Positions 15,964-41,529 of a stretch of DNA of 64,000 nt are shown here, one piece after another. A program made the translations under genes and the position numbers. Each line of letters starts with the position of its first letter. Position 1 is the first letter of the stretch. Source of the DNA: Streptomyces sp. MUM 178J (GTDB lineage Bacteria; Actinomycetota; Actinomycetes; Streptomycetales; Streptomycetaceae); NCBI RefSeq assembly GCF_022414575.1, contig NZ_JADWYQ010000010.1, forward strand, positions 77,283-141,282, in the 5' to 3' direction. Under the pieces are notes generated by a model. The model worked only from the letters and a program-made list of their open reading frames with translations. It made no database searches and had not been told where the DNA came from.

Positions 15964-18477
15964 TCAGGACGCCGGGAAGCCTCCGCCCCGGCGTGCGGTC
16001 GTCAGCGCCCGCGCGAGCGTCTCGACCGTCGAGCAGGAGAACAGCACCCGGACCGGGATCTGAAGGCCGAACTCCTCCTGGAGCCGCAGCGCCACCCGGG
16101 TGGCGATCAGCGAGTCCCCGCCCAAGGCGAAGAAGTCGTCGTGGGCGCCGACCTCGTCGGCCCACAGCGCCTCGGCCCAGATCCGGGCCACCGCCCGCTC
16201 CGCCGGGGTGCGCGGCGCGGTGAACGCCGCCTCCAGGCCGGACCGGGCGCCGTCCGGCGCGGGCAGCGCCGCACGGTCCGTCTTGCCGCTGGGCGTCAGC
16301 GGCAGCCGGTCCAGGAAGACGAACGCGCCGGGCACCATATAGCCGGGCAGCGTGTGCCCGCACCATGCCCGCAGCGCCTCCGCGCCGAGCGTGCGCCCCG
16401 CAGCTGGAACGCAGTAGCCGACGAGGGCCCGCTCGCCCGGCACGTCCTCCCGGACGGTCACCACACAGGAGGCGACGTCCTCGTGGGCGAGCAGCGCCGC
16501 CTCGATCTCGCCCGGCTCGATGCGGAATCCGCGCACCTTCACCTGGTGGTCCAGCCGCCCCAGGAACTCCAGGTTGCCGTCGGGCAACCAGCGCACCAGG
16601 TCGCCTGTGCGGTACACGCGCCCGGCCGCTCCGTCCGCGATCCGCGTGTCGGTGAACCGCTCCCGCGTCAGCTCCGGCCGGTCAAGGTAGCCGCGGGCCA
16701 CCCCCGCGCCGCCGATGAGCAGTTCACCCGGGACGCCTGTCGGCACGGGCCGGTCGGAGGCGTCGACGACGTACACCTCGGTGTTGGGGGTGGGCCGGCC
16801 GATCGGGACCGGGCCCGTCGCGTCCCGGATCTCGGCGACGGTCGCATAGACGGTGGTCTCCGTCGGCCCGTAGCCGTTGACGACGCGGCGGCCCGCCCGC
16901 AGCATCCGCGCGGCCAGCTCCGCGGGCAGGGCCTCGCCCGCGGTGAAGACGGTCAGATCGCGCGGCGTCTCCCGCTCGCCCAGGGCGTCCAGCAGCGGCC
17001 GCCAGGCCGAGGGGGTGGCCTGCACCAGGGTGACGGAGTGCCGGTCGACGAGTTCGGCGAGCGCGCTCGGGGTGTGCACCTGGTCGCGGTCCGCGCCGAT
17101 GATCCGGCCACCGGTGGTCAGCGGCAGGAACACCTCGACACCCGCGATGTCGAACGTGGCGGAGGTGGTGAACAGCACCCGGTCGCTCGTCGGCGCGGGG
17201 AACGTCTCGCGCATCCCGTAGACCAGGTTCACCAGGGACGCGACCGTGACGGCCACGCCCTTGGGTGCGCCGGTGGAGCCCGAGGTGTAGAGCACATAGG
17301 CCAGATGCTCCGGCCCGGCCGCGGGGGAGGGGTCGTGGTCCGGGCCGGCGGCGATCGCCTCCCGGTCCCCGTCCACCGCCACAAGGGCGCGGCCCTCCCC
17401 GGCGAGCCGCTCACACAGGGAGCGCTGGGTCACGACGACCGGCGCGGCCGTGTCGCCGAGGACGAACGCAAGCCGCTCCACGGGGTGTTCCGGATCGAGC
17501 GGAACATACGCCCCGCCGGCCTTCAGCACCGCGAGCAGCGCCACGACCAGTTCGACGCCGCGCTCCAGGCAGACGCCGACCGGGACGTCGGGGCCGACGC
17601 CCAGGTCCTTCAGGCGGTGCGCGAGGCGGTTGGCCCGTGCGTTCAGCTCCCGGTAGGCGACCTCCTCGGAGCCGAAGACCACCGCCGTCGCACCGGGGGT
17701 GCGCGCCGCCTGCTCGGCGAACAGCCGGGCGACCGTCGTGTCCGCCGGGAAGGAGACGGCGTTCCGTCCCCATGCGCCCACCAGCACATCCCGTTCCGTT
17801 GGAGTGAGCGGGTCGAGCTCGCCGAGGACGGCGTCCGGCGCGTCGCCCACGGCTTCCAGCAGCGTGAGGTACGCCCCGGCGAACCGCTCGGCGGTGGCGG
17901 CGTCGAACAGCGCGGTGCGGTAGTCCAGGTGCAGCACAAGACCGGAGCCCTGCTCGTCGTGGGCCAGCGCCAGATCGGGCGGACAACTCCCGGCCGGCAC
18001 GGGCCACACCGACTGCGCGCGAGTGAACACGGCCTGCACCAGAGGATGATGGCCGGCGGCCGGCTCCGGTACGAGGGCGGCGGCCAGCCGCTCGAACGGC
18101 GGCTGCTCGGGGGCGAGCCGCAGGGCCGCGTCCACCTGCTCCGCAAGCCGCCCGAACGGAACTCCGGCGTCGAGATCCGCCCGGACGACGACCGGGACGT
18201 CGTCCACCAGGGCGCCCACCGCCACATCGTGCCGACGGCTCCACCGCCCCAGCAGCGTGTGGTACACGGCGAGCAGCGCGGCGGGCAGACCGACCCCGCG
18301 GTCGGCCGCCGCCTTGCGCAGGGCGTCCGCGACACCCGCCGGGACGAGGCGGGTGTGCCGGGACGTGCCGCCGTCCGCCGCCAGGGTGCGCGGCCGGTCG
18401 GCAGGCAGCTCCAGCGGTTCCAGGTCCGCCAGTTCAGTCCGCAGCCGCTCCAGCGCGTCGGTGGTTGCGTCGGTCAT
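15964..18477 (-). CDS. NRPS: half-condensation, adenylation, carrier (C'-A-PCP)
   Basis: 837 residues from ATG 18477, which overlaps the previous stop (ATGA). Residues ~20-240 match only the C-terminal lobe of a condensation domain (from LELPADRPRT through QPPFERLAAALVPEP); the N-terminal lobe with HHxxxDG is missing. A full A domain follows, with LAYVLYTSGSTGAPKG (A3), FDIAGVEVF (A4), NGYGPTETTVY (A5), YRTGDL (A7) and the catalytic Lys in LTPSGKTDR (A10). The ten-residue specificity code reads D-I-V-Q-F-A-G-V-Y-K, which I cannot match confidently to one amino acid; Asp235 indicates an alpha-amino acid. The PCP has DDFFALGGDSLIAT with the pantetheine Ser. It probably initiates a chain. No thioesterase is attached. 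Confidence 0.88.
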   Translation of the reverse strand: MTDATTDALERLRTELADLEPLELPADRPRTLAADGGTSRHTRLVPAGVADALRKAAADRGVGLPAALLAVYHTLLGRWSRRHDVAVGALVDDVPVVVRADLDAGVPFGRLAEQVDAALRLAPEQPPFERLAAALVPEPAAGHHPLVQAVFTRAQSVWPVPAGSCPPDLALAHDEQGSGLVLHLDYRTALFDAATAERFAGAYLTLLEAVGDAPDAVLGELDPLTPTERDVLVGAWGRNAVSFPADTTVARLFAEQAARTPGATAVVFGSEEVAYRELNARANRLAHRLKDLGVGPDVPVGVCLERGVELVVALLAVLKAGGAYVPLDPEHPVERLAFVLGDTAAPVVVTQRSLCERLAGEGRALVAVDGDREAIAAGPDHDPSPAAGPEHLAYVLYTSGSTGAPKGVAVTVASLVNLVYGMRETFPAPTSDRVLFTTSATFDIAGVEVFLPLTTGGRIIGADRDQVHTPSALAELVDRHSVTLVQATPSAWRPLLDALGERETPRDLTVFTAGEALPAELAARMLRAGRRVVNGYGPTETTVYATVAEIRDATGPVPIGRPTPNTEVYVVDASDRPVPTGVPGELLIGGAGVARGYLDRPELTRERFTDTRIADGAAGRVYRTGDLVRWLPDGNLEFLGRLDHQVKVRGFRIEPGEIEAALLAHEDVASCVVTVREDVPGERALVGYCVPAAGRTLGAEALRAWCGHTLPGYMVPGAFVFLDRLPLTPSGKTDRAALPAPDGARSGLEAAFTAPRTPAERAVARIWAEALWADEVGAHDDFFALGGDSLIATRVALRLQEEFGLQIPVRVLFSCSTVETLARALTTARRGGGFPAS

Positions 18478-20048
18478 GACCCCTCCCGGGTGCCGAGGAT
18501 CCGCGCCAGCGCCGTGCGGTCCGTCTTTCCGTTGTCGTTGAGCGGCAGGCCGTCCAGCCGCCTGATCCGGGCCGGCACCATGTGCAGCGGCATCTGGTCG
18601 CGCAGCCATGCGTCAAGCGCCGCCGGGTCTGCGGCGCGTCCGGCGTAGGCCGCGGCCAGCTCGGTCTCGCCGTCGTCCGCTGGCAGTGCGACCACCGCGG
18701 CGTCGACCACATGCGGGTGGCGTCGCAGCACCGCTTCCACCTCGCCGGTCTCCACCCGGTGGCCGCGTACCTTGACCTGCTGGTCGAGGCGTCCGCAGTG
18801 CACCATCACCCCGTCCACACGCCGGACGCGGTCGCCGGTGCGGTACCAGTGGCCTGCGGTGAGCGGGGCGGAGCCGTCGTACACGACGGCCCGGCCGCCC
18901 TCCTCGTACGACAGGAACCGGCCGGTGTTCTCCCGCGGATCGAGATAGCCGTCGAACCGCTGCGGGCCGCGCACGCACAGCTCGCCCTCGTCGGCGGGCA
19001 GCCCCTCGTCGTCCAGCAGGACGCCTTCCATGTGCGGGTACATGGTCCCGATGGGCACGGTGCCGCCCGGGTACTCGGGCCAGTCGGAACCGGGGCCGGT
19101 CAGCCGGTGGTTGGTGCAGCAGATGGCCAGTTCGGTGGGGCCGTACACATTGTGGATCTGCGACTGAGGGGCCACCTCGCGCCACAGCGCGGCATGCTGG
19201 GCGGTGACCGGCTCCGCGCCGAACATGCTGTGCCTCAGGGAGACGGCCCGGCCCAGCGGAAGGTTGCCGAGCCGCTGCGCCTCCCGCACCACCGACGGCA
19301 CCGAGAACCAGTGCGTCAGACGGCGCTCCACGACGAAGTCCACCGGCGTGTACAGGTCTGTGGCCGTCGGCACGACCAGCGTGCCGCCGCCGCCCCATGT
19401 CGCGAACAGGTCGAAGACATGCGCGTCGAAGGTCAGTCCGAACGCCTGTGACAGCCGGCTGCCCGGCGCGATCTCATAGCGCGGGATGTTGTGCGCGAGG
19501 TACGGGGAGATCTGACGCTGGAGGATCGGCACGCCCTTGGGCTGGCCCGTCGACCCCGAGGTGAACAGGATGTACGCCTCGCCGTCGAGGTCGTGCGCCG
19601 CCGGCGGCAGCGCCCCCGCCGGCGGCGGAGCGTCTGCCCGCTCGTCCTCGGCGAGCTCCAGCACCGTCGGCCGGTGGCGCTCGGGCAACTGCCGGAACAG
19701 GCCGGCGGACCGGCCGTCGACCAGGGCGACCTCGACGCCCGCGCGCTGGGCGACGTCGAGGTTGCGCTGCACGGGATGGTCGGAGTTCAGCGGGACCACG
19801 CCGGCGCCGAGCCGCTGGACGGCCAGGTACCCGGCGTACGCGGCGACGGTGCGGGAGGCCGCCAGCGCCACCCGGCGGGGCGTGCGGCCGTGCTTGTGCA
19901 CGATCCGCTCGGCCACCGTGAGGGCCAGCGCCCGCAGTTCCGCGTAGCTGAGGACTTCGTCGCCGACCTCCAGGGCGGGGTGGTCCGGCAGCCGCCCGGC
20001 GGTCTCCTCGAACCACTGGTACAGGGTGCGCTGCTGAACGGCTGTCAT
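18474..20048 (-). CDS. Stand-alone NRPS adenylation domain
   Basis: 524 residues with a complete A domain and nothing else: EAYILFTSGSTGQPKG (A3), FDAHVFDLFATWG (A4), HNVYGPTELAICC (A5), YRTGDRVRRV (A7), the hinge LDQQVKVRGHRVETGE (A8) and the catalytic Lys in LNDNGKTDR (A10). There is no carrier domain. The specificity code reads D-A-F-F-M-G-V-I-C-K, suggesting an alpha-amino acid with a hydrophobic or aromatic side chain, though I have no exact match. ATG 20048 overlaps the previous stop (ATGA). Directly upstream is a module with a dead A domain, so this enzyme is the natural candidate to load that module's PCP in trans. An MbtH partner is encoded at 44327-44521. Confidence 0.87.
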   Translation of the reverse strand: MTAVQQRTLYQWFEETAGRLPDHPALEVGDEVLSYAELRALALTVAERIVHKHGRTPRRVALAASRTVAAYAGYLAVQRLGAGVVPLNSDHPVQRNLDVAQRAGVEVALVDGRSAGLFRQLPERHRPTVLELAEDERADAPPPAGALPPAAHDLDGEAYILFTSGSTGQPKGVPILQRQISPYLAHNIPRYEIAPGSRLSQAFGLTFDAHVFDLFATWGGGGTLVVPTATDLYTPVDFVVERRLTHWFSVPSVVREAQRLGNLPLGRAVSLRHSMFGAEPVTAQHAALWREVAPQSQIHNVYGPTELAICCTNHRLTGPGSDWPEYPGGTVPIGTMYPHMEGVLLDDEGLPADEGELCVRGPQRFDGYLDPRENTGRFLSYEEGGRAVVYDGSAPLTAGHWYRTGDRVRRVDGVMVHCGRLDQQVKVRGHRVETGEVEAVLRRHPHVVDAAVVALPADDGETELAAAYAGRAADPAALDAWLRDQMPLHMVPARIRRLDGLPLNDNGKTDRTALARILGTREGS

Positions 20049-21358
20049 CGGTTCCTCGATATCCATGTGCGCTCCAGGTTCTCCACCAGGTCGGGGCTGT
20101 GGAGACGTCGGCACTGCTCGACGGCGTAGTCGGCCAGGTAGAGCCGCAGCACGTCCTCGGGCTCTTCATGCGCGTGCAGGATGCGCCGGTTGCCCACGAC
20201 CGCGGGGTCGGCGAGCTCGGCGGCCGCCGCCGCTGCCGCCGCGTCCATGCGGTCGGCCGGCACGGCTTCGTCGCACAGCAGCCGGCCCTCCCCGGACCGC
20301 GCGTCGATCCGCCGGTCCGCGAAGATCGCCTGCCGGGCCAGCCGGTTGCCCGCCACCCGGGACAGCCGCAGGTTGGCCGCGCCCGGGATGATGCCCTCGC
20401 GGAGTGCGGGCAGCGTGAAGTAGGCGTCGTCGGTGGCGATCACCCGGTCGAAGACGAGCAGGATCTGCGCCCCGCCGCCGATCGCGAAGGTGTCCACGGC
20501 GGCCGCCCACGGCTTCTCGACGGGCTCGGGCAGCCAGTCGCCGCCGTCGTCCGGCACGCTCAGACCACGGAAGATCTTGTTGATGTACCCGAGCTCCCGG
20601 GCCAGGAAGAAGTCGATGAGCGAGATCTCGCCCTCGTACAGGCGAGTCAGGTTGATGCCCGCGCTGAACACCCTCCGTCCGGCGTAGCGGGGGTGCGTCA
20701 TCGCCGCGCCGCGCAGCACGCCGACCCGGATCCCGTCGTCCAGCAGCACCAGGTCGACCGCGGCCTCCAGCGCGGCGACCAGCAGGTCGTCCTCGGCGTT
20801 GAGGAACCGCGCGTTGTCCACGGTCACCTCGCCCACCCCGTCCCGCCGCTCGACGGAGACGATGCCGAAGTCGGCCCGGCCCGTGGCACGGAAGGCAGGC
20901 AGGGCCGCCAGCGCCTTCGGGGTCGGCCTGCGCATGGCCTCCATCAGATGCCGCCCCGCGGCGGCGGAGCGCAGCAGCCCCCAGAAGAGGATGCCGTGGT
21001 CGATCTCCCGGCCTTCCTTCACCCGCTGCGGACGCCGTCGCTCCGCCTCGATCTGCTCCTTCGTCGGCGTCAGACCGGGGATCAGACGGGCCGCCCCGGC
21101 GGCGAGGTCGTCCAGCCGGAGGAACGCCCGCCGGCCGTCGGTCAGTTCCGCGTACAGGGTTTCCGCGTGCAGCTCGACGAATCGCCGCCGGGCCCGGCGG
21201 GCCGCCGTGTGCAGCCGGACCGCGGCCTCGCCCGGCCCGGCTGCACGCAGTTCGTCCTCGAAGCGCGCGAGACAGCGGGCCGTCGCCGCGCAGTCGTCGG
21301 CGTATCCCCGGCCCAGCTCGGGCACGGCCGCGGTGCTGTCCACCGCCGTCACCGTCAT
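20045..21358 (-). CDS. DpgC-like cofactor-independent dioxygenase (crotonase superfamily)
   Basis: 437 residues with the two-part layout of DpgC, the 3,5-dihydroxyphenylacetyl-CoA 1,2-dioxygenase: a helical N-terminal domain (about 1-170, including GLTPTKEQIEAERRRPQRVKEGREIDHG, of which KEGREIDHG is most diagnostic) and a crotonase domain. In the latter, RVFSAGINLTRLYEGEI is the first oxyanion segment and DTFAIGGGAQILLVFDRVIA carries the GGGxQ motif with the active-site Gln; the Arg of LRLSRVAGNRLARQ follows. Known DpgC uses O2 without metal or flavin to turn an arylacetyl-CoA into an arylglyoxylate, the precursor of an arylglycine. No DpgA, DpgB, DpgD or aminotransferase lies in the window. 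The enzyme is coupled to its neighbours by ATGA overlaps on both sides. Confidence 0.85.
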   Translation of the reverse strand: MTVTAVDSTAAVPELGRGYADDCAATARCLARFEDELRAAGPGEAAVRLHTAARRARRRFVELHAETLYAELTDGRRAFLRLDDLAAGAARLIPGLTPTKEQIEAERRRPQRVKEGREIDHGILFWGLLRSAAAGRHLMEAMRRPTPKALAALPAFRATGRADFGIVSVERRDGVGEVTVDNARFLNAEDDLLVAALEAAVDLVLLDDGIRVGVLRGAAMTHPRYAGRRVFSAGINLTRLYEGEISLIDFFLARELGYINKIFRGLSVPDDGGDWLPEPVEKPWAAAVDTFAIGGGAQILLVFDRVIATDDAYFTLPALREGIIPGAANLRLSRVAGNRLARQAIFADRRIDARSGEGRLLCDEAVPADRMDAAAAAAAAELADPAVVGNRRILHAHEEPEDVLRLYLADYAVEQCRRLHSPDLVENLERTWISRNR

Positions 21359-24300
21359 CGTGTCCTCCCATGGGTGCGTGTGCGGCCGCGGGCCTTCATG
21401 GCCAGCTGCCGTGCCTGAGCGCGGCCGGAGGCGGCCGGCCGGGCGTCTTCGGCCGCGCCGGCGGCGTCGTTCGCACCGGCGAGGAGCGCCGCCATGGCCC
21501 GGACGGTGGAGTGCCGGAACAGGTCGATCAGGTCGACGTCGCGCTCCAGCGCGGTGCGCAGCCGGTCGCGCAGCCGGATGAGCAGCAGCGAGTTGCCGCC
21601 CGCGTCGAAGAAGCTCACGTCCGGGCCGACGGCGCGGCCGAGGACCTGCTCCCACGCATCGGCGACATGCCGCTCCACGGAGCTCGCAGGCCGCCCCGTC
21701 GCGCTGCGCGCCGCCGTGCGCCGGGCGGCGGCCTCGGCGAGCGCCGTGACCAGGCCGGACCGGTCCGTACGCCCGCTGGGCAGCAGCGGAATGCGGTCCA
21801 GCACCTCCAGTTGCGCGGGGACCATGAAGCCGGGCAGCGTCTCGGCGAGACGGGTGCGCAGCACGTCGGCGGTCACACCCGAGCCGGGGCGGACGACGGC
21901 CGCCGCGACGAGGCCGCCGCCCCGGGCTGCCGCCCGGGTCCCGTCCCCGGTTCCGACCGCAGCCTCCGCGCCGGCTGCGGCCCCGACCCCGGTCCGGCGC
22001 TCCGCCCCGGTCCCGGCCGCGCCCCCGTTCCCGCAGGCGGCGTCCCCGGCTCCGGCTGCCACCGCGGCCCCGCTGCCGGCTGCGGTCCTGTTCACGTGTG
22101 AGGTCGCCATCCCGGCGATGGTCCCCTCCGCGTCTGTGCCTCCGGTTTCGGCCGGGACCGCGGCCCCGGCGCCGGTTGCGGCCCCGGCCCGGGTCTCCGC
22201 CCCGCTCCCGGCTGCCGCCCGGGCCCGGGTTGCGATTCCGCCCCTCGTGCCGGTCCCGGCGCCCCCGGTCGAGTCGCCGGTCCCGGTCGCGTCCGGGCTT
22301 GCGGTTGCGGGGACGGTCCCGTTCGCGGCTGCGGTCCGGTTCGCGTCCGCGTCGCCGGTCCCGGTCGTGGCGGCGTCCGCGTCGCTTCCGGCATCCGCCA
22401 GCACCTCGGCGTGTACGACGGCCGGGTGCGCCAGCAGCGCCGCCCGGACGTCGGAAGCAGCCACCCGTACGCCCCGCACCAGCGCCTGCTCCGTGATCCG
22501 CCCCGCGAACAGCAGTCGGCCGTCCGGGGTTCGGCGCGCCAGATCCCCGGTGGCGAACAGCCGGGCGCCCGGGCTCCCGGTGAAGGGATCGGGCCGGAAC
22601 CGCTCCGCGGTCAGGCCCGGTCGGCCGAGGTAGCCGCGGGTCACGGCCGGGCCGCCGATGTGCAGTTCACCGACGACGCCCGGCGGCGCCGGCCGCCCCA
22701 GGGCGTCCAGCACATACGCCGTGGCCCCGGCGGGCACGCCCAGTTCGACCGTGCGCACCGCGTCATCCGCGCCGACCGGTTGGGCGAGGGCGCATCCGGC
22801 CGTCTCGGCCGTGACGTACAGATGGTGGACCGCCCGGGCCCCGGCGTCGTAGGCCGCCCGCACCTGGGCGGGCGCCAGCGGTTCGCCGCCCGCCAGCACG
22901 AAGGCCGCCCCGGCCGCACCGGGAGCCGACAGCTGCGACGGCGCCGCGTACACCGTGCCGGAGACGGCGTCGCCGTCCGGAACCAGCACCCGGCCGCCGC
23001 GGGTGAGCGGCGCGAAGAGTTCGAACACCGCGCCCGGGGTGTCCGGCGGGCTCTGCAGCGCCACCGAGTCGAGCGCGCCCGAGGGCAGTTCGCGGTGGGC
23101 CCAGCGCAGCCGGGACGCCAGCTGGCGGTGCTCGGCGACCACGGGCAGCGGCTCCCCGGTGACGCCTGAGGTCCGCAGCACCCAGGCCGCGTCGCGGGGG
23201 CCGGCGGACCGGGCGCGGGCGTCCGGCCCGCCGTCATCCGAAGCCGCGGGGGCGTCCGGCACGGCGCTGCGCGCGACGTCCAGTTCCACCACGTGCACGC
23301 GTGTGTGGTCGAACAGGGAGAACGAGACGCCGTCCGCGAGGACGGTCTCCACCTCCGCGTCTTCGACGGCCAGCCGCAGCAGGAAGGCGGGCAGCGCCGG
23401 ATCGAGCGGGACGCATGCGCCGCCCGCCTTCAGCACGCCGAGGTGGGCGGCGGCCAGTTCGAAGGAGGCCGGGGCGCACACGCCGACCCGCACCTCGGGG
23501 CCGACGCCGCGATGCCGCAGCCGGTCCGCGAGACGCTCCGCCGCCGCGTCCAGCTCGCCGTACGTCCACGACCGCTCCCCGGCGCTCAAGGCGACCGCGT
23601 CGGGCGTGCGCGCGACCTGCTCGGCCACCAGCGTGTGCACACACTCCTCGACGGCTTCCCCAGCCGTCCGCCCGCCGTCTGGCGCCGACCGCAGCAGCTC
23701 CGCCTCGGTGGGCCGCAGCAGCTCGGACACCCGGGCCGCCGGGTCGGCGCCGACGCGCTCCAGCACGGTCCGCAGACAGGTGAGCAACTGCTCGGCGGCG
23801 GCGTCCTCGAAGAGCTCGGTGCGGTAGTCGACCACGGCCAGCAGACCCTCGTCGGTCTCCACCGTGTCGATGGCCAGATCGGTCTTCATCGTCGGCAGCC
23901 GCAGCTCCGCGGCCCGGAACACCGCCTCGCCCGCCCGGTGGACGCGCGCCGCCGGCTGATGGGTGTACATCACCTGGTACAGCGGGTGGTAGCTCGGATC
24001 GCGGGAGACGCCGAGGGCGTCCATCACCTCGTCGACGGGCAGGTCCGCATGGTCCAGGGCGTCCAGCAGGTCGCCGCGCACCGCGCCGAGCAGTTCCTCG
24101 AAGCGCGGGTCGCCCGACAGGTCGCCGCGCAGCACCACGGGCCGCGTGAGATAGCCGATGAGCCCGGCGCTGCCGGGGGTGTCCCGGCCGGAGACGGCCA
24201 TGCCGGTGAGCACGTCGACGCCGCCGTACCGGCTCAGCACCACGTCCGTCGCGGCCTTGAGGACCATGTACAGGCTGCACCGCCTGGCGCGCGCGAGCCT

Positions 24301-34600: not shown

Positions 34601-36450
34601 GCCCCGTGTGCGTCCGCCTCCTTCGCGCCGGAGCCGGCGGCGAACGCGACCTCGCGGACGTCCCAGCCGGTCAGCGGCAGCAGGATCTCCGCACAGCGGT
34701 CGAACGCCTCGCGGAACACCGGTTCGGTGCGGTAGAGCTCCGCGCCCATGCCCGCGAACTGCGCCCCCTGACCGGGGAAGAGGAACACCACGTCGGGCGT
34801 CGGGCCGCCCTGCGGGACGGGTTCCGTCGCGGCCGCGGGGCGGCGCAGCGCGGCGACGGCCGCGGCGCGGTCGGAGGCCACCACGGCACGGCGGCGGGCG
34901 AACGCGGCCCGCCCCAGCTGCAGTGTGTACGCGGCGTCGCCGAGACCTGCGTCCGGCTCCGCCTCCAGGGCCGCGGCCAGCCGCTCCGCGGCGGCCCGCA
35001 GCGCCTCGGGCGTGCGGGCCGACAGCGGCAGCACATGCCAGTGGTCGTCGGCCGCCACCGCGGCGGCCCCGCCGTCCCGGTCCGCGGCGGCGAGGCCGCC
35101 GCGGAGACGACCGGCGGCCGGGGCGGCCTCCAGCACGACATGGGCGTTGGTGCCGCCGATGCCGAAGGCGCTCACCCCGGCGCGCGGCGGCAGCTGTGTC
35201 CGCGGCCACGGCCGGCCCGCGGCGTCGATCCGGAACGGCCCCTTCTCCAGGTTCAGTCGCGGATTGGGATCGGTGAAGTGGGCGGTCGGCGGTATGAAGC
35301 GGTGCTCCAGCGCCAGCACCGCCTTGATCAGGCCGGTGACGCCCGCCGCGGCGTCGAGGTGGCCGACGTTTGACTTCACGGAGCCCAGATGGACCGAACC
35401 CGGTGCGAGGTCCGGGCCGAAGACCTCGGTGAGCGCCTGCACTTCGATCGGGTCGCCGAGCGGTGTGGCGGTGCCGTGCGCCTCGACGTACTGGACCGTG
35501 CCCGGCTCCACGCCGGCGACGGCCAGCGCCTCGGCGATCACCTCGCTCTGCCCCCGCTGCGACGGAGCGGTGAAGCCGATCTTGGCGGAGCCGTCGTTGT
35601 TGACGGCGCTGCCGCGGATCACGGCATGGATGTGATCGCCGTCGGCGACCGCGTCCTCCAGCCGCTTGAGCACCACCATCGCCACGCCGTCGCCCGAGAC
35701 GGTGCCGGTGGCAGCGGCGTCGAAGGGACGGCAGCGGCCGTCAGAGGACAGGATCGCGCCCTCCTCGTACCGGTAGCCGCGAGGCTCGAACTCCCGCACC
35801 GCCACACCGCCGGCCAGCGCCAGATCCGACTCCCGGGTGAGCAGCGACTGCACCGCCAGATGCACCGTCACCAGCGATGACGAGCAGGCGCTCTGCACGG
35901 TGAAGCTGGGCCCGGTCAGACCGAGCTTGTACGACACACGCAGCGCGAGCATGCCCGGGTCGTTGCCGACGGCGACCTGGATCTCGTCCGAGACCCGGCC
36001 GTCCTGTGACGTGTGGGGCACCCGCTCACGCAGATAGCCGCTGCCCGCCACGCCGGCGAACACGCCCGTGGGGCCGTCGAACGTGCCCGCCGGGTAGCCG
36101 GCCCGCTCCAGCGCCTGCCACGAGGTCTCCAGCAGCAGCCGGTGCTGCGGATCCATCAACTCCGCCTCGGCGCGGGTGACGCCGAAGAAGTCCGCGTCGA
36201 AGCGGTCGTACCCCTCCAGCGGGAAGCCGGACTTCACCAGCGCCGGATCGTCCAGCAGCCGCTGGGGCACTCCGGCCGCGGCCAGCTCCTCGTCCGTATA
36301 GCGGGTGCTGCCCTCCGCACCGGACACCACCAAGCGCCACAGCGCCTCGACGTCCTCGGCGCCGGGGAAGCGCCCGCTCATCCCGATGACGGCCACGCAC
36401 TGCTCGGGCAGTCCGGGCAGCTCGGTCTGGTGCGTCTCGCGTTCCGTCAT
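31657..36450 (-). CDS. Type I PKS module: KS-AT(malonyl)-KR*-ACP
   Basis: 1597 residues from ATG 36450 (ATGA overlap). The KS (about 17-430) has Cys189 in VQSACSSSLV, VEAHGTATPLGDP and KSNVGHLDAAAG. The AT (about 530-860) has FLFPGQGAQFAGMG, TGHSLGELVAA and SHAFHTALV; the HAFH form predicts malonyl-CoA. A short ADAHGADAHQADAPGADA repeat is inserted in its N-terminal part. The KR region keeps a weak nucleotide loop (VTGVSGEAGLAFAEE) but its active site reads GQSENCAAAAFLD, so the catalytic Tyr is Asn (32344-32346) and the helper Asn is Ala; it should not reduce the ketone. The ACP has DDDFYDLGGNSLFAIQ. No DH or ER is present. The expected extension is a beta-keto C2 unit. Confidence 0.92.
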   Translation of the reverse strand: MTERETHQTELPGLPEQCVAVIGMSGRFPGAEDVEALWRLVVSGAEGSTRYTDEELAAAGVPQRLLDDPALVKSGFPLEGYDRFDADFFGVTRAEAELMDPQHRLLLETSWQALERAGYPAGTFDGPTGVFAGVAGSGYLRERVPHTSQDGRVSDEIQVAVGNDPGMLALRVSYKLGLTGPSFTVQSACSSSLVTVHLAVQSLLTRESDLALAGGVAVREFEPRGYRYEEGAILSSDGRCRPFDAAATGTVSGDGVAMVVLKRLEDAVADGDHIHAVIRGSAVNNDGSAKIGFTAPSQRGQSEVIAEALAVAGVEPGTVQYVEAHGTATPLGDPIEVQALTEVFGPDLAPGSVHLGSVKSNVGHLDAAAGVTGLIKAVLALEHRFIPPTAHFTDPNPRLNLEKGPFRIDAAGRPWPRTQLPPRAGVSAFGIGGTNAHVVLEAAPAAGRLRGGLAAADRDGGAAAVAADDHWHVLPLSARTPEALRAAAERLAAALEAEPDAGLGDAAYTLQLGRAAFARRRAVVASDRAAAVAALRRPAAATEPVPQGGPTPDVVFLFPGQGAQFAGMGAELYRTEPVFREAFDRCAEILLPLTGWDVREVAFAAGSGAKEADAHGADAHQADAPGADAQEAAERLRQTRYTQPAVFCVDYAVARLLMSWGVHPDAMTGHSLGELVAACLAGVFTLEDALRVVARRAELMQELAPGRMLSAPLDEKSLAEALDGRATIAAVNAPESCVVAGAPEEIAEARRLLRERGVPVRELETSHAFHTALVEPALPGLAEVLRSVRLNKPRIPFLSNVTGAWITDEQAVDPEYWVAHTRRPVRFADGIAALAQRGPAVLVEVGPGSQLSGLVRSRPAPPPTVTLLRRPRGEQGPAEQRALREGLAELWRLGAGPDWAALHRGRERSRVPLPAYPFEGRSHLLPKPQEAPGGNLRADPARWTYAPVWRRAPLLPDAPEPSEASGASAGEADPGSAEATAAWLVLADEHGLTDEVSAGLRARGHTVATVRKGTAYARSSAHDFTADPADPDALPQVVRELGRDGLLPGRVLHAWSVTGRADDGRDAAGRCADALDAGFHSLVCLAQALGEGGGTRPVRVDVVTDGLQDAHGTAVTRPERAAVYGAVTVLPQEYPWLTCRAVDITLPADAAGLARTTRRLAAELAGPGRESLVALRGAQRLVRAFAPVELEEVPAERAWREDAGYLVTGVSGEAGLAFAEELAAAGARLLLVGDPEFPAEGDWAAWLSGTAGGDERVRDRVARLAALCRARPEAVAYRGADLGDPAQAADVVAGARELLGAVRGVLHCADARGSGLVALKTRGDFDPVLAARVRSTLLLEELLAAEPLDFFLVGSAATGVIGGFGQSENCAAAAFLDSFAQAAAAAGRNTVAVDWAQWEWDDWFEQQMAGLPEVRELYERLRRTQGVPVADGLALARAALAGGLPQVVVSKADFQDVLADQAGLTATSFTDALGSGREQSDDDWDPATVWPDDDVAQSVARVWRDMLGVSPIGPDDDFYDLGGNSLFAIQIVGRLRQAHGDFPMSAVFEAPTVPGLAAAIRAHQAEAIGLDEFEALLREVEGLSADEAEAKLKGDHV

Positions 36451-38333
36451 GCGTTCCCCCCGTGCGGGTCGGAAGTGGACCGGCCGTGTTCGCCGGAGTC
36501 GTTCTGTGCCGCGAGCAGTTCGTCCAGGGCGCCCGCGAGTTCCCGTACGTTCGGCCGGTCGAAGAGCATGCGGAGCGACACCGCGGCGCCCAGCTGCTCC
36601 GTGGCGATGGCCACGGCCTGGGTGGCGAGCATCGAGTGGCCGCCCAGTTCGAAGAAGTCGTCGTCCAGGCCCACCCGGTCGACGCCGAGCACCTCGGCCC
36701 AGATGTCGGCGAGCGCCTTCTCCACGGGCGTGCCCGGGGCCGCGAAGTCCGCGTCCAGGTCCGGGCGGACCGCGTCGGGCGCGGGCAGCGCCCGTCGGTC
36801 CACCTTGCCGTTGAGCGTCAACGGCAGCCGGTCCAGGGCCATGTAGACGTTCGGCAGCATGTAGTCGGGAAGCGTCCGAGCCAGGTGCTCGCGCAGCTCC
36901 GACGGTCCGGCCGGGGCCGCGGCCACCCAGTACGCCACCAGGCGCGGGTCCCCTGCGGCGTCCTCGTCGACGGCCACGACCGCGTCGCGCACCGCGGGGT
37001 GCCGGGTGAGCGCGTTCTCGATCTCTCCCGGCTCGATGCGATAGCCGCGGATCTTGACCTGGTGGTCCAGGCGGCCCAGGTACGCGTGGTCGCCGTCCGC
37101 GTCACGCCGTGCTGCGTCGCCCGAGCGGTACCGCCGGGCGCCGGGCGCCGCCGCGTCCGGATCGGGCAGGAACCGCTCCGCGGTGAGGGCCGGGCGGCCC
37201 AGATAGCCGCGCGCCACGCCCGCCCCGCCGACGTACAGCTCACCGGCCGTGCCCGTGGCCGCCTCGGCGCCGTCGGCGTCGACGACGCGCATCGTCCAGC
37301 CGTCGAGCGCCTCTCCGATCATGCTGCCGTCGCCGTCGAGGTCGGCCGCGGTCATCCGCCGGTATGTGGAGTGCACCGTCGTCTCGGTGATCCCGTACAT
37401 GTTGACCAGTGCGGGTGTCGCGTCGCCGTGGCGGGCGATCCACGGCCGCAGCATGCCGGGCGGCAGCGCCTCCCCGGCGAAGACCGCCAGCCGCAGCGCC
37501 AGTTGCGCGGGCGCGGCCCCCTGCGCCACCTGCTCCTCCTCGTACCGGATCAGCTGCCGGAAGGCGGCCGGGGTCTGGTTGAGGACGGTGACACGCTCGC
37601 GGTGCAGCAGCGCATGGAGGTCCTGTGGGGAGCGACGTACGTCCTCCGGCACGACGACGAGGCGTCCGCCGTGCAGCAGCGCGCCCCACATCTCCCACAC
37701 CGAGACGTCGAACGCCGCGGAGGAGAACATCGACCACACGTCCCCGGGCCCAAAGCCGAACCTGTCCCGCACACCGGTCAGCAGGGCCGTCACATTGCGG
37801 TGCTCGACCATGACGCCCTTCGGGACGCCTGTCGAACCGCTGGTGTAGATGACGTACGCGAGGTTCGCCGGGCCCGTTCCCGCGTCGTCGGGCGGGGTGA
37901 CGGGGTATGCGTCCGGCGCGGCGCCGCCCGGGCCGGTCACCACCGTGCGCTCGGCGCGGGGCCCGGCGTCGGCCGCGTCCGTGAGCAGCACCGCTGCGCC
38001 GGCGTCGGCCAGCAGGAAGGCCTGCCGCTCCGCGGGGCTCGCCGGGTCGACGGGAACATACGCGCCGCCGGCCTTCAACACCGCGAGCAGCGCCGTCACC
38101 AGGCCGGCGCCGCGCTCCATGCGGACGGCGACCGGCGTCTCCGGGCCGACGCCGAGCGTCCTGAGGCGGTGGGCGAGCCGGTTCGCGGCATGCTCCAGCT
38201 CCCGGTAGGTCAGTCGGCCGTCGCGGGCCGTCACGGCGACGGCGTCGCCGCGGTCCGCGGCCTGCCGTGCGAACCGCGCGTGGATCGTCGCGGAGGCTTC
38301 CCGGGCGGCCGGGGCCGTTTCGTCAACGGTCAA
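36447..38333 (-). CDS. NRPS: A(Thr-like)-PCP
   Basis: About 628 residues. The A domain has YVIYTSGSTGVPKG, FDVSVWEMWGALL, NMYGITETTVH, the hinge LDHQVKIRGYRIEPGE and LTLNGKVDR with the catalytic Lys. The specificity code D-V-W-N-F-G-M-V-H-K agrees at eight of ten positions with the standard threonine code, so Thr or a close beta-hydroxy analogue is predicted. The PCP has DDFFELGGHSMLAT. I place the start at TTG 38333, which follows GAGAGGAAC and overlaps the upstream stop by 11 bases; no ATG or GTG lies nearby and ATG 38435 would overlap the upstream gene by over 110 bases. No C domain is present; the preceding protein supplies it. Confidence 0.88.
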   Translation of the reverse strand: MTVDETAPAAREASATIHARFARQAADRGDAVAVTARDGRLTYRELEHAANRLAHRLRTLGVGPETPVAVRMERGAGLVTALLAVLKAGGAYVPVDPASPAERQAFLLADAGAAVLLTDAADAGPRAERTVVTGPGGAAPDAYPVTPPDDAGTGPANLAYVIYTSGSTGVPKGVMVEHRNVTALLTGVRDRFGFGPGDVWSMFSSAAFDVSVWEMWGALLHGGRLVVVPEDVRRSPQDLHALLHRERVTVLNQTPAAFRQLIRYEEEQVAQGAAPAQLALRLAVFAGEALPPGMLRPWIARHGDATPALVNMYGITETTVHSTYRRMTAADLDGDGSMIGEALDGWTMRVVDADGAEAATGTAGELYVGGAGVARGYLGRPALTAERFLPDPDAAAPGARRYRSGDAARRDADGDHAYLGRLDHQVKIRGYRIEPGEIENALTRHPAVRDAVVAVDEDAAGDPRLVAYWVAAAPAGPSELREHLARTLPDYMLPNVYMALDRLPLTLNGKVDRRALPAPDAVRPDLDADFAAPGTPVEKALADIWAEVLGVDRVGLDDDFFELGGHSMLATQAVAIATEQLGAAVSLRMLFDRPNVRELAGALDELLAAQNDSGEHGRSTSDPHGGNA

Positions 38334-39966
38334 GGTCGGTGTTCCTCTCAGTGCCGCAGCCGGCGGACCGGACCGCTGCGAGATCCGGGACCGGCTTGTC
38401 CGGGAAGGCGATGGCTTCTTCCAGCGCCTGCTCAAAGGCGGCCAGCAGCGCGGCCGGCGTGTCCGGTCCGAACAGGTCGGTGTCGTACTCGAGGGTCAGC
38501 GCGATGCCTTCGCCGCGCTCCTCCACGTACAGGCTCAGGTCGTACTTGGCGGTGTCCTGCGGTCCCGCGAGGTCGAGAACGCACTCGTCGAGCCCGGCGA
38601 AGACCGGGGCTCGGCGCTCGCCCAGATAGCTGAACATCACCCGGAAGACCGGCATGAAGTCGCGGGCGCGCCGCGCCACCAAGGCCTCCACGAGCTTGTC
38701 GAACGGCAGGTCCTGGTGCTCCGAGGCGTTCAGCACCGCCGTGCGCACCCGGCCGAGCAGCTCACGGAAGCCCGGGTTCCCGTCCAGCCGGGCACGCACC
38801 GGCACCATGTTGATCAGACAGCCGACCATGTCCTGGGTCTCGGGCCGATTGCGGCCCGCGGCCGGGATCCCGACCGTCATCTCCCCGGCCCGCGCCCACC
38901 CCGCCAGCAGCGCGTGGAACGCCGCGAGGTACGTCATGTTCGCCGTGGCCCGCTCCCGACGGCCGAACTCCCGCACCTCGCGCACCAGCCGGGGGCCGAG
39001 GGCGCGGGTGGCGACCGCGCCGCGGAAGCTCTTGGACGCGGGCCGCGGCCGGTCGGCCGGCAGGTCCGGGGCCTTCGGGTCGACGCCGAGCGCGGCGCGC
39101 CAGTGGTCGACCAGACGCCTCAGCCTCTCCCCGGCGAGCTCCCGGCGCTGCCAGGCGGCCAGGTCCGCGTACTGCACCGCCACCGCGGGCAGCCCGGCCC
39201 CCGCGGAGCCGTACAGCAGCCCCAGCTCCCGGTAGAAGATCTCCACCGAAGCCCCGTCGACCGCGATGTGATGGAACGTCACCAGCAGCCGGTGCTCGTC
39301 CTCGGCGACCTTGACCAGCCGGGCCGCCAGCGGGGGAGCGGCGGCGAGGTCGAAGACCCGTGCCGCCTCCTCGGCTGCGATGCGCTCCGCCCGGCCCGTC
39401 GCGTCGGGTGCTCCGGCCAGGTCGGTGTACGGCAGAGGCGCCGGCGCAGGCGGCTCGACTACCTGGTGCGGCCGGCCGGACACCGCCGCGTATGTCGTAC
39501 GGAGCACCTCGTGACGGGCCACCACGGCGTTCAGGGCCCGTCCGAGGGCCGCTCGGTCCAGGGCGCCGCGCAGCCGCAGCGCCGTCGGCACGTTGTACAG
39601 CGTGGAGCCGGGGTCGAGTTGCTGCATGAACCACAGCCGCTGCTGGGCGAAGGACAGCGGGGGCCGCTCCCCGCGCGGCCCCGGCCGTGGACCGGACGGC
39701 TCCGGCGGGGCGTCGCCCGCCCCCGGCGGCCTCTTCATGGCCTCGCGGACCAGCCCCGCCATGCCCTGAAGCGTGTCCGCGCCGAGCAGCTCGGCCGGGG
39801 CGACGCGGGCGCCCAGCTCCTCGTCGACGCGGGCGGCGAGCCGGCCCGCCGCGGCGTCGTCCCCGCCGAGCGCGCCGAACCCCGAACCGAGCCCTACGCC
39901 GGTGACCTTCAGCAGCTCGCACCACATATGGGCGAGCTCCTCTTCGACGAAACCCATGGCCGTCAT
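38323..39966 (-). CDS. NRPS: degenerate carrier plus condensation domain (PCP*-C)
   Basis: 547 residues from ATG 39966 (ATGA overlap with the type II thioesterase). Residues ~5-70 look like a carrier protein (EEELAHMWCELLKVTGVGLG), but the attachment motif reads FGALGGDDAAAGRL, so the pantetheine Ser is Asp37 and the domain cannot be primed. A full C domain follows (about 90-530), with LSFAQQRLWFMQQLDPGS (C1), VTFHHIAVDGASVE (C3) and the later conserved motifs (GCLINMVPVRA, QDLPFDKLVEALV). With no A domain, this protein must join a donor from another protein to the Thr-PCP encoded next. The dead carrier may be a docking element. Confidence 0.88.
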   Translation of the reverse strand: MTAMGFVEEELAHMWCELLKVTGVGLGSGFGALGGDDAAAGRLAARVDEELGARVAPAELLGADTLQGMAGLVREAMKRPPGAGDAPPEPSGPRPGPRGERPPLSFAQQRLWFMQQLDPGSTLYNVPTALRLRGALDRAALGRALNAVVARHEVLRTTYAAVSGRPHQVVEPPAPAPLPYTDLAGAPDATGRAERIAAEEAARVFDLAAAPPLAARLVKVAEDEHRLLVTFHHIAVDGASVEIFYRELGLLYGSAGAGLPAVAVQYADLAAWQRRELAGERLRRLVDHWRAALGVDPKAPDLPADRPRPASKSFRGAVATRALGPRLVREVREFGRRERATANMTYLAAFHALLAGWARAGEMTVGIPAAGRNRPETQDMVGCLINMVPVRARLDGNPGFRELLGRVRTAVLNASEHQDLPFDKLVEALVARRARDFMPVFRVMFSYLGERRAPVFAGLDECVLDLAGPQDTAKYDLSLYVEERGEGIALTLEYDTDLFGPDTPAALLAAFEQALEEAIAFPDKPVPDLAAVRSAGCGTERNTDLDR

Positions 39967-40742
39967 GCGAACGACACCCCGGTTCGCGCCGTGCGCACGG
40001 TCCTGTGCAGCAGATCCATGAAGCGCTGCGGCCGCGCGCCGAGATAGAAGTGGTCGCCCTCGAACAGGTGCAGCTCGGCGCCCGCGGTCGTGTGGCGGCT
40101 CCACTCCCCGGCCTCCGCCGCCCGCACGTCCGGGTCGCCGTCGGCCGTGCAGACCGTGACCGGGCAGCTCACGGCCGCGTCCGGCGCGGACCGGTAGTCC
40201 CGCAGGGCGCGCAGGTCGGCGCGGAGCGCCGGAATGAACAGCCGTACGAGTTCCTCGTGTTCGGCCACACCCTCGGCGGTGCCGCCGAGACCCATGACGC
40301 GCGCGAGGACCTCCGTGTCCTGCTCGTCCTCGATCCCGCTCAGCCGGTCGGCGCGGTTGGCGTGATGCGAGGGCGCCGCGCAGGCCGAGGCGATCAGCGC
40401 GGCGGGCGCCGCGGGCGAGAAGGGCTGCTCCAGCCGCCGGGCGACCTCGAAGGCGGCGATCGCGCCCATGCTGTGCCCGAACAGGACGGGCTGGCTGAGC
40501 GGCCGGGACCTTAGCGCACCGGCCGTGTGGTCGGCGAGCTGCGCCAGAGACGAGGCGGGTTCCTCGAACAGCCGGTTCTCCCGCCCCGGGTACTGGACGA
40601 CGAGCATCTCGACGTCCGGTGCGAGCGCCGCGGACAGCCCGAAGTAGTAGCTTGCCGAACCGCCGGCGTGCGGGAAGCAGACCAGCGTGTGCCGGGCCCC
40701 GGGTTTGGGATGGAAGCAACGGATCCAGCGGTCTGGGTCCAT
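39963..40742 (-). CDS. Type II (editing) thioesterase
   Basis: An alpha/beta hydrolase of about 259 residues with the thioesterase II signature: VCFPHAGGSASYY near residue 22, nucleophile Ser in LFGHSMGAIAAFEVA near 90, and the His in FEGDHFYLG near 230. These free-standing enzymes clear wrongly loaded carriers in NRPS/PKS lines. I chose ATG 40742; an in-frame TTG at 40760 behind AGGGAAC is a good alternative and would add six residues. Longer frames add only His/Thr-rich shadow sequence. It is the second gene of the biosynthetic operon, 73 bases after the FMN reductase. Confidence 0.9.
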   Translation of the reverse strand: MDPDRWIRCFHPKPGARHTLVCFPHAGGSASYYFGLSAALAPDVEMLVVQYPGRENRLFEEPASSLAQLADHTAGALRSRPLSQPVLFGHSMGAIAAFEVARRLEQPFSPAAPAALIASACAAPSHHANRADRLSGIEDEQDTEVLARVMGLGGTAEGVAEHEELVRLFIPALRADLRALRDYRSAPDAAVSCPVTVCTADGDPDVRAAEAGEWSRHTTAGAELHLFEGDHFYLGARPQRFMDLLHRTVRTARTGVSFA

Positions 40743-40815
40743 GTCTGTGTGACGAGTCAACGTGAGTTCCCTGCCGAGCCTCGTACGCGGGGTCGGTGAA
40801 GTCGAATGACGGGGG

Positions 40816-41529
40816 TTATCGAAGCGGGGCGACGGCGGCGGGGCGGCCGGGGAGGCGGTCCCCGAGGGCGTGGTCCGCCGGGAGGCCGTCCTGTGCGTGC
40901 ACGTCCTGTGCGTGCCCGTCCTGTGCGTGCCCGTCCTGCGCCTGGGGGTCCTGTGCACGCAGGGCGTGCTGCGCCCGGGCGAAGTCCACCACCTGCGCGG
41001 CCATCGTGGTCAGCTGGTCCCGGATATGCCGGTCGTCGCACTCCCCGGCCTCCGTGAAACGCGCCGCGGCGGTGCTCACGGCCACGCCCAGCGGGGTGTT
41101 CCAGCCGCGCAGCGCGTGCGCCGCGTCGCGTAGCGCGCCCAGTGTGGTCACAGCTCCCTGCCAGCCCTGCCCCACGGCCACAGAGCCGACGGCGCGCCCG
41201 CTCATATACGGCCGTACGTCGTCGCGCAGCTGCTCCAGGTGATCCAGCGCGTTCTTCAGCAGCCCGGACACCGTTCCGTGGTACGCGGGGCTCGCGAGGA
41301 CGACTCCGTCCGCCGCGGCAACCTCCGCCAGCAGTCTGCGGGCCGGGGGCCGCCGTCCGGCCGCGGTCCGCGGGTCGAACAGGGGCAGCTCCAGTTCGGC
41401 GCCGCCCACCAGGCTGACCTCCGCCCCCAGCCGCGCCGCCTCGCCCAGCACAAGCCGCAGGGCCCGCTCCACTGTGGAGCCGGGCCGCGAGGACCCTCCG
41501 ATCCCCACCACCTTGACGGACTTCTGCAT
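40816..41529 (-). CDS. NADPH-dependent FMN reductase
   Basis: 237 residues from ATG 41529. The flavodoxin-like fold is shown by VKVVGIGGSSRPGSTVERAL at residues 5-24 (phosphate-binding loop), ELPLFDPR, and the SPAYHGTVSGLLKNALDHLE motif near 85-105, which is typical of NADPH-dependent FMN reductases. It most likely supplies reduced FMN to the luciferase-like monooxygenase further down the operon. The C-terminus ends in a run of AQDGH pentapeptides (about residues 200-220) encoded by a 15-bp tandem repeat; this tail is not part of the family fold. It is probably the first gene of the long minus-strand operon. Confidence 0.88.
   Translation of the reverse strand: MQKSVKVVGIGGSSRPGSTVERALRLVLGEAARLGAEVSLVGGAELELPLFDPRTAAGRRPPARRLLAEVAAADGVVLASPAYHGTVSGLLKNALDHLEQLRDDVRPYMSGRAVGSVAVGQGWQGAVTTLGALRDAAHALRGWNTPLGVAVSTAAARFTEAGECDDRHIRDQLTTMAAQVVDFARAQHALRAQDPQAQDGHAQDGHAQDVHAQDGLPADHALGDRLPGRPAAVAPLR
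40885..40950 (-). repeat. 15-bp tandem repeat encoding AQDGH units
   Basis: About four copies of a 15-bp unit (core GTCCTGTGCGTGCCC on the plus strand) near the 3' end of the FMN reductase gene. The unit length is a multiple of three, so copy number could change without breaking the frame. Confidence 0.75.

What the first reader, a model, noticed from the sequence alone, without database searches (positions are those of the whole stretch)
15964..41529. Non-collinear hybrid NRPS/PKS line built from separate small proteins
About 25 kb of minus-strand genes, nearly all joined by 4- or 8-base stop-start overlaps, encode PCP*-C, A(Thr)-PCP, KS-AT-KR*-ACP, LLM monooxygenase, C-A(Gly)-PCP-TE, MFS, C-A*-PCP, DpgC-like, stand-alone A and C'-A-PCP. 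The single releasing domain sits in the middle of the operon, and the modules encoded after it have no release step, so gene order cannot equal chain order. The set does not match a pathway I recognise. The first C domain has no functional carrier of its own in cis, which suggests that chains start on the later-encoded modules and are passed forward. Seen: domain order and motifs. Inferred: chain order.
Basis: partly seen in the sequence, partly recalled or inferred. Interest (0 to 1): 0.85.

Follow-up and report, generated by a model that had tools for sequence, protein, structure and literature searches.

The report
Reverse-started peptide-polyketide line with plug-in residue
A Streptomyces gene cluster builds a small peptide-polyketide from separate proteins, probably starting with the genes read last, and one building block seems to be set by two detachable helper genes, one of which some relatives have lost.

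Summary
The 25-kb operon is real. Eight Streptomyces genomes carry it in one gene order. Dead carrier, dead KR and dead A domain recur in all ten loci read, so this is a kept design. The operon runs on to about 11764.

The three complete C domains group with LCL types and the line's only release domain is on the Gly module, so the best order is X -> Y -> Thr -> malonate -> Gly: the residues encoded last go in first.

New: (1) the "DpgC" lies outside the DpgA-linked DpgC clade, beside phenylglycine-type (PglA) relatives; the genome has no DpgA. (2) It sits beside the freestanding A domain, which should load the dead-A module. Three relatives lost the dioxygenase; in two the freestanding A has the longest relative stem of 16 genes and a changed pocket, the third keeps the pocket. 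(3) The LLM has an N-terminal helix like that of the Gly module and fits alpha-hydroxylation of the beta-keto intermediate. (4) The TE nucleophile is Cys. The product is unknown; no matching cluster turned up in the papers searched.

The parts
41897..42805 (-). LysR-type regulator
   Evidence: Pfam; found in 7 of 8 genomes, the eighth (G784) holds only a piece at a contig end
40816..41529 (-). NADPH-dependent FMN reductase, likely supplies FMNH2 to the LLM
   Evidence: PF03358; 71-73% in relatives
39963..40742 (-). type II thioesterase (GHSMG)
   Evidence: PF00975; motif
38323..39966 (-). PCP*-C: Ser-less carrier plus LCL-type C domain, first half of a split Thr module
36447..38333 (-). A (Thr-like, DVWNVAMVHK)-PCP
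31657..36450 (-). KS-AT-KR*-ACP; AT motif HAFH (malonyl by recall), KR without Tyr and Asn, acidic C-terminal tail
30414..31670 (-). MupA/PuwE-type FMN-dependent LLM monooxygenase with N-terminal docking-like helix
   Evidence: TIGR04020 448 bits vs cut-off 244; PDB 6ket E 3.2e-100; helix
26281..30417 (-). C-A(Gly, DILQLGVIWK)-PCP-TE; C motif DHLVWDR; TE nucleophile Cys (GWCYGG)
25014..26288 (-). MFS exporter
21355..25017 (-). C-A*-PCP: intact C (HHIVFDG) and PCP (FFDAGGNSL), dead A domain
20045..21358 (-). PglA-type cofactor-free dioxygenase (DpgC superfamily), probable arylacetyl-CoA to arylglyoxylate enzyme
18474..20066 (-). stand-alone A domain (DAFFMGVICK), proposed trans loader of the C-A*-PCP carrier
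15964..18477 (-). C'-A-PCP: half C domain, A (DIVQFAGVYK, substrate unknown), intact PCP; proposed loading module
14587..15819 (-). ATP-grasp ligase (BacD / L-amino-acid-ligase-like, weak)
13887..14594 (-). HAD-family hydrolase
12757..13890 (-). lactate/malate-dehydrogenase-like protein by predicted fold; no Pfam or NCBIfam match
   Evidence: (wrong-frame ORF only)
11764..12696 (-). NAD-dependent epimerase/dehydratase-like protein

Best explanation
A dissociated NRPS-PKS line whose chain starts on the last-encoded proteins. Inferred order: (1) C'-A-PCP loads amino acid X. (2) The freestanding A domain loads Y onto the PCP of C-A*-PCP, whose own A is dead; its C domain makes X-Y. (3) The PCP*-C protein condenses X-Y with Thr held on the separate A(Thr)-PCP. 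(4) The PKS adds malonate; its KR is dead, so a beta-keto thioester stays on the ACP. (5) The LLM, docked to the ACP tail by the same kind of helix as the next module, hydroxylates the alpha carbon with FMNH2 from the FMN reductase. (6) The Gly module adds Gly and a cysteine thioesterase releases the product. Y is probably an arylglycine such as phenylglycine in strains with the dioxygenase: host phenylacetyl-CoA goes to phenylglyoxylate, then a host enzyme transaminates it. Strains that lost the dioxygenase probably load another residue. Shown: domains, conserved degeneracy, gene order, deletion scars, place of the dioxygenase in a tree, docking-helix similarity. Inferred: chain order, substrates, alpha-hydroxylation, trans loading.
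For: Same gene order in 8 Streptomyces genomes. Dead carrier, dead KR and dead A domain in 10 of 10 loci. Thr code identical in 10 of 10 loci; third A code DIVQFAG[VI]YK in 8 of 8 genomes. Three C domains on the LCL side. Dioxygenase sister to E1-linked G062 (97/92) and outside the 41-row clade of mainly DpgA-linked copies (100/99). No DpgA in the window genome, best 29.7 bits vs 425; PaaK present, 717.5 vs 646.3. PglA is called Phg dioxygenase in PMC7089894 (passages). G607 and G446 lack the gene, G085 keeps a broken remnant, and none has another copy. Solo A has the largest relative stem (0.406) of 16 genes on the G607/G446 stem, with pocket DAIFMGVVCK there against DAFFMGVICK in the window. 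12 solo-A/dioxygenase pairs have matching contig lengths, all DA[FY]F with I or L at 330. LLM vs Gly-module N-terminus z = 10, 0 of 500 shuffles. MupA hydroxylates beta-keto-ACP, not beta-hydroxy-ACP (PMC10952193, passages).
Against: No PglB/PglC genes in the operon (I did not search the genome for them), and no PglE-like aminotransferase above 34% identity in the window genome. G085 lost the dioxygenase but keeps the pocket DAFFMGVICK. The solo-A code differs from the streptogramin Phg code DIFLWGLLGK. That the dioxygenase of the streptogramin-like loci is PglA is my inference from gene order; two papers also call PglA a dehydrogenase. TEII, LysR and LDH-like genes also have raised stem ratios (0.31-0.33); G784 is missing from them. 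The G784 LLM gene as called lacks the helix; it lies in the open frame upstream. The C-domain trees carry long-branch warnings. No biochemistry or product is known.
Confidence: 0.6

Rival explanations
1. The dioxygenase acts on a carrier-bound chain and releases it oxidatively (thioester to alpha-keto acid), giving a second exit from the line for the modules without a TE.
For: DpgC turns arylacetyl-CoA into the arylglyoxylic acid, losing CoA (PMC5132015, passages). No aminotransferase was found in the operon and the modules beside the gene have no TE.
Against: The closest relative outside the operon (G062, 69%) sits with E1 and E2 genes that make acyl-CoA. Three relatives lost the gene while the rest of the line stayed. 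In two of the three the solo-A pocket changed.
Confidence: 0.12
2. Two products: X-Y is made and released separately, while Thr-C2-Gly is made by the TE-containing half.
For: Two blocks of modules lie on either side of the TE, and a type II TE is present.
Against: The PCP*-C protein would then lack a donor, yet its C domain motif is intact in 10 of 10 loci and it is LCL-type. The two blocks stay together in 8 genomes.
Confidence: 0.12
3. Plain collinear order of the operon with the TE acting in trans at the end.
For: A(Thr), PKS, LLM and Gly module are themselves in working order along the operon.
Against: The last-encoded module has only half a C domain, and the TE is part of the Gly protein in 10 of 10 loci.
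Confidence: 0.04
4. The dioxygenase makes 3,5-dihydroxyphenylglycine precursor (true DpgC).
For: Best solved relative is DpgC, E 1.9e-121.
Against: Below the DpgC equivalog cut-off, 499.7 vs 530; this cut-off does not separate the types by itself, since E1-linked G062 scores 532 and G129 498. No DpgA in the genome. Outside the DpgA-linked clade.
Confidence: 0.05

Closest known systems
WS9326A NRPS with trans-acting A domains (PMC7539972, abstract and outline)
   Same: Gene order departs from collinearity; freestanding A domains serve the line in trans and are essential.
   Different: The abstract, all I saw of the text, mentions no dioxygenase beside the trans A domains and no PKS-LLM step; here the served module keeps a dead A domain.
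Streptogramin B (pristinamycin I) phenylglycine operon pglA-E (PMC7089894, passages)
   Same: A PglA-type dioxygenase supplies a residue for one NRPS position.
   Different: There PglB-E are present and SnbDE itself incorporates Phg; here only the PglA-type gene is present and the A domain is freestanding.
MupA of mupirocin (PMC10952193, passages) and the puwainaphycin PuwE monooxygenase (PMC4219810, passages; PDB 6ket)
   Same: Same LLM family; proposed or shown to act at the alpha carbon of a carrier-bound PKS intermediate.
   Different: Here the LLM is a separate protein with an N-terminal helix like that of the downstream NRPS module; in PuwE it is a domain of a larger protein.
Cysteine thioesterase domains (AB3403, SulM, ObiF; PMC11298585, passages)
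   Same: Cys nucleophile; best solved relative of this TE is AB3403 (4zxh, E 1e-27).
   Different: By my reading the catalytic Asp is in the usual place (MMD), unlike SulM and ObiF, so four-membered ring closure is not indicated.

Membership tests
TIGR04020 MupA/Atu3671 LLM monooxygenases | score above curated cut-off | tested here: met
   448.4 vs 244.45 bits
TIGR04020 MupA/Atu3671 LLM monooxygenases | alpha-hydroxylation of beta-keto-ACP | not testable with these tools
   inferred from MupA and the dead KR
DpgC (3,5-dihydroxyphenylacetyl-CoA dioxygenase) | score above NF042432 cut-off | tested here: not met
   499.7 vs 530 bits; cut-off not selective, E1-linked G062 scores 532
DpgC (3,5-dihydroxyphenylacetyl-CoA dioxygenase) | DpgA/DpgB beside it or DpgA in the genome | tested here: not met
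   41 of 42 rows of the DpgA type have both neighbour families; DpgA none over cut-off in G000
PglA (phenylglycine dioxygenase) | groups with E1-linked, not DpgA-linked, dioxygenases | tested here: met
   sister to E1-linked G062 97/92; DpgA-linked clade 100/99 excludes it; E1-linked rows are not one clade with it
PglA (phenylglycine dioxygenase) | PglB/PglC and PglE genes beside it | tested here: not met
   none in the operon; no PglE-like protein above 34% in G000
PglA (phenylglycine dioxygenase) | acts on phenylacetyl-CoA | not testable with these tools
   needs enzyme assay
Trans-acting A domain system | module without working A domain plus freestanding A domain in the same cluster | tested here: met
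   A* broken in 10 of 10 loci; solo A with intact A3 and A10 in the window sequence
Trans-acting A domain system | solo A loads that module's PCP | not testable with these tools
   needs loading assay
Published cluster with known product | same gene set and order | tested here: inconclusive
   paper searches found none; MIBiG not available

The most novel reading that the evidence does not exclude
One position of a megasynthase has been handed over to a plug-in cassette: the built-in A domain is dead, and a freestanding A domain plus a freestanding amino-acid-making dioxygenase set the residue. Evolution then changes the product by deleting the small enzyme and re-tuning the small A domain while the large machinery stays fixed. 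In the same line a monooxygenase has gained the docking helix of the next module, so tailoring enzyme and next module visit the same ACP through the same dock; that LLM arrangement recurs in four phyla.
Probability: 0.4. Interest if true: 0.75.

Novelty: new variant of a known kind. Interest (0 to 1): 0.6.

Why it matters
Engineers want to swap single residues in assembly lines without breaking them. Here nature seems to have made one position swappable with two small genes, and three natural deletion strains are at hand as test cases. The shared docking helix suggests a way to bring a tailoring oxygenase to a chosen carrier. The product may be new.

Tried and rejected
True DpgC / dihydroxyphenylglycine: rejected as the main reading. 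KR Tyr to Cys, my first reading, corrected to Tyr to Asn with Asn to Ala after aligning the motif. Four-membered ring closure by the Cys TE: considered, not favoured. Idea that dioxygenase-less strains borrow PglA from a cluster elsewhere: no second copy in G607, G446 or G085. First docking-motif script used faulty patterns and was replaced. My first C-domain tree had no starter-type row; I added one, where it fell outside the group of 20 rows that holds the window's C domains (95/97), on a long branch. A scan with the LDH-like protein over 296 class-level genomes found only the window at E 1e-90. Paper searches for a known cluster gave no match. ARAGORN tRNA calls inside the NRPS genes taken as false, not tested. 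Absence of the dioxygenase in strains known only from the protein search (P0010, P0011, P0015-P0019) was not claimed: contig lengths there are given for one contig per cluster.
Full report
Observation. On the minus strand of the window (72% GC, Streptomyces-like) the genes run, 5' to 3': LysR, FMN reductase, type II TE, PCP*-C, A-PCP, KS-AT-KR*-ACP, LLM, C-A-PCP-TE, MFS, C-A*-PCP, DpgC-like, solo A, C'-A-PCP, ATP-grasp, HAD, LDH-like, NAD-epimerase. Ten junctions from C'-A-PCP to the type II TE overlap by 4, 22, 4, 4, 8, 4, 14, 4, 11 and 4 bases.

Conservation. Searches with the dioxygenase (295 genomes) or the solo A domain (394, 392 and 391 genomes; the samples overlap), plus a scan of genome contigs with the LLM, gave 8 genomes with the same operon: G000 (window), G114, G714, G784, G783, G085, G607 and G446. 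L030 and G714 appear to be one strain (Streptomyces sp. WZ.A104) and L031 and G784 one strain (S. alkaliterrae), by equal contig lengths, so my 10 loci are 8 genomes. Contig ends cut some copies: tail genes are missing from L030 and L031, and G784 lacks some end genes. Two further solo-A matches at 60-61% (G766, G775) lie in other clusters. PKS, Gly module, A(Thr)-PCP and MFS together are 72-95% identical between the 8 genomes. In 10 of 10 loci the PCP* has no Ser, the KR has Asn for Tyr and no Asn, the A* has a broken A3 and Arg for the A10 Lys, and the Gly-module C domain reads DHLVWDR for HHxxxDG. The degeneracy is therefore old and kept.

Chain order. C domains of PCP*-C, C-A*-PCP and the Gly module (window, G114 and G607: 9 rows) fall with the internal streptogramin C domains, 97/98 and 95/97, not with the C domain that follows an E domain nor with the one starter-type row (types recalled from the known module order). 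The tool warned of long branches. No E domain shows among the condensation matches of the operon. C'-A-PCP has only the second half of a C domain. With one TE, on the Gly module, the linear route through all modules is X -> Y -> Thr -> C2 -> Gly.

Polyketide step. The LLM belongs to the MupA family (448 bits, cut-off 244); PuwE is the best solved relative. MupA hydroxylates a beta-keto-ACP but not the beta-hydroxy form (PMC10952193, passages), which fits the dead KR here. In the G114 proteins, the N-termini of LLM and Gly module share a helix (LKERLSSLSPEQRAVLERSLRER / LADRLAGLTPAQRALLDRRMRER): score 73 against a shuffled mean of 25, 0 of 500 shuffles as high, z = 10. The next of the 36 pairs tested were z 5.3 (Gly module with C-A*-PCP) and z 5.2 (A(Thr) with solo A). 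The helix pattern marks 10 of the 22 (L030-L039: Actinomycetota, Bacillota, Chloroflexota, Acidobacteriota); L052 has a partial form; 11 lack it. In 9 of the 10 the next gene begins with the helix too (not L034). Most downstream A codes read there are not Gly, and 4 upstream KRs read there keep the Tyr (L039, L050, L066, L103), so Gly and KR loss are not general to this arrangement.

The dioxygenase. The closest solved protein is DpgC. Of 61 matches at E 1e-98 or better, I fetched the context of 52 and added L030 and L031: 54 rows. 41 rows have DpgA- and DpgB-type neighbours (one representative each checked: DpgA 644 bits, crotonase). L149 has neither. Seven have E1 subunit genes beside them (G062, one of two in G023, G129, G103, G161, G174, G114:C773); G021 lies in a streptogramin-type cluster without them. 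Four are this operon (two are the L030/L031 copies). In the tree the operon copies form one group (100/98) with G062 as sister (97/92), outside the clade of 41 other rows (100/99), of which all have DpgA-type neighbours. The E1-linked rows do not form one clade with them; most lie between, and G114:C773 is next to the DpgA-linked clade on a long branch. Several residues follow the E1-linked type (196 D to A, 319 A to L/M, 346 L to F, 411 F to Y). By A codes, G129, G103, G161, G174 and G021 look like streptogramin B clusters (codes recalled), and the gene order in G129 is that given for pglA, B, C, D, mbtY, E; PglA is there called the Phg dioxygenase (PMC7089894, passages), although its table and another paper say dehydrogenase. 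The window genome has no DpgA but has PaaK.

A natural experiment. G607 and G446 lack the dioxygenase gene: C-A*-PCP runs into solo A with a 4-base overlap. G085 keeps a short frame with the old start region and the old C-terminus. In G607 the new C-terminus of C-A*-PCP, IPRKR-stop, is by my reading the old 3' end of the dioxygenase in the same frame. None of the three has another copy at E 1e-30. The Thr code is identical in 10 of 10 loci, the third code is DIVQFAG[VI]YK in 8 of 8 genomes and the Gly code DILQxGV[IV]WK in 10 of 10 loci. The solo-A code is DAFF[MLK]G[VM]ICK in the five genomes with the gene, DAIFMGVVCK in G607 and G446, and unchanged in G085. On a fixed tree the G607/G446 stem, relative to the rest, is largest for solo A (0.406) among 16 genes; the others range from 0.092 to 0.334, and the three at 0.31 or more (TEII, LysR, LDH-like) lack G784. 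This supports a change of substrate after loss in that lineage. G085 speaks against strict coupling, unless its loss is recent.

Protein database. 48 solo-A relatives were found; 19 are at 73% identity or more. 12 of the 48 share a contig length with one of 21 dioxygenase relatives; all 12 codes are DA[FY]F with I or L at position 330. Codes DVYSSG[AV]IGK (3) and DAFFMGVVCK (2) also occur among the 19; their context is unknown.

Release. The Gly-module TE has a Cys nucleophile (GWCYGG) in 10 of 10 loci; three of three streptogramin-type TEs have Ser. Its best solved relative, AB3403, also has Cys (PMC11298585, passages). The release mode is unknown.

Novelty. Trans A domains, PglA enzymes and LLM hydroxylases are known. 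Their combination as a detachable residue cassette, and the shared docking helix on a stand-alone LLM, did not turn up in paper searches; none of these was aimed at the docking helix, and the library holds open-licence papers only. I rate it a new variant of a known kind.

Noticed in passing
L162:8640-9671 (G607) and the gap between LysR and FMN reductase in G114, G783, G784, G085, G714, G446: An extra divergent gene of about 343-349 aa; the G607 copy is an aspartate-semialdehyde dehydrogenase, the G114, G783 and L031 copies are 60-69% like it, the rest are inferred from place and length. It is absent from the window operon; the window genome has three homologues elsewhere at 40-44%. Precursor supply or spare target copy are possible.
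   Followed up: partly
window 12757-13890: Protein with no NCBIfam match and no solved relative by sequence, but a confident lactate/malate-dehydrogenase-like fold (pLDDT 94.7; Foldseek best E 5e-11, TM about 0.5). 229 relatives at E 1e-5; some share a contig length with solo-A relatives in Frankia and Micromonospora.
   Followed up: partly
G062:C110 (L013): Cousin cluster at a contig edge: NRPS with Thr- and Gly-type A codes, LLM, type II TE and PglA-type dioxygenase with E1alpha, E1beta and E2.
   Followed up: partly
G114:C773:26946-28196: The genome that holds a sister operon has a second dioxygenase of this superfamily with E1alpha, E1beta and E2 beside an NRPS (code DAILLGVLFK).
   Followed up: no
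L167-L171: A related solo A domain (51-54% identical, code DPFF[IV]IVVAK) stands near an LLM and a PKS in other Streptomyces; its role is unclear.
   Followed up: no
L030-L039, L052: PKS, then stand-alone LLM with helix, then NRPS beginning with a like helix is a repeated arrangement.
   Followed up: partly
window 38900-38995 and 39636-39731: Two tRNA calls by ARAGORN lie inside the PCP*-C gene and look false.
   Followed up: no
window 43290-44306 (+): LuxR-like regulator; the G607 copy beside LysR is 70% identical to it and 74% to the G114 copy, so it probably belongs to the cluster's control.
   Followed up: partly
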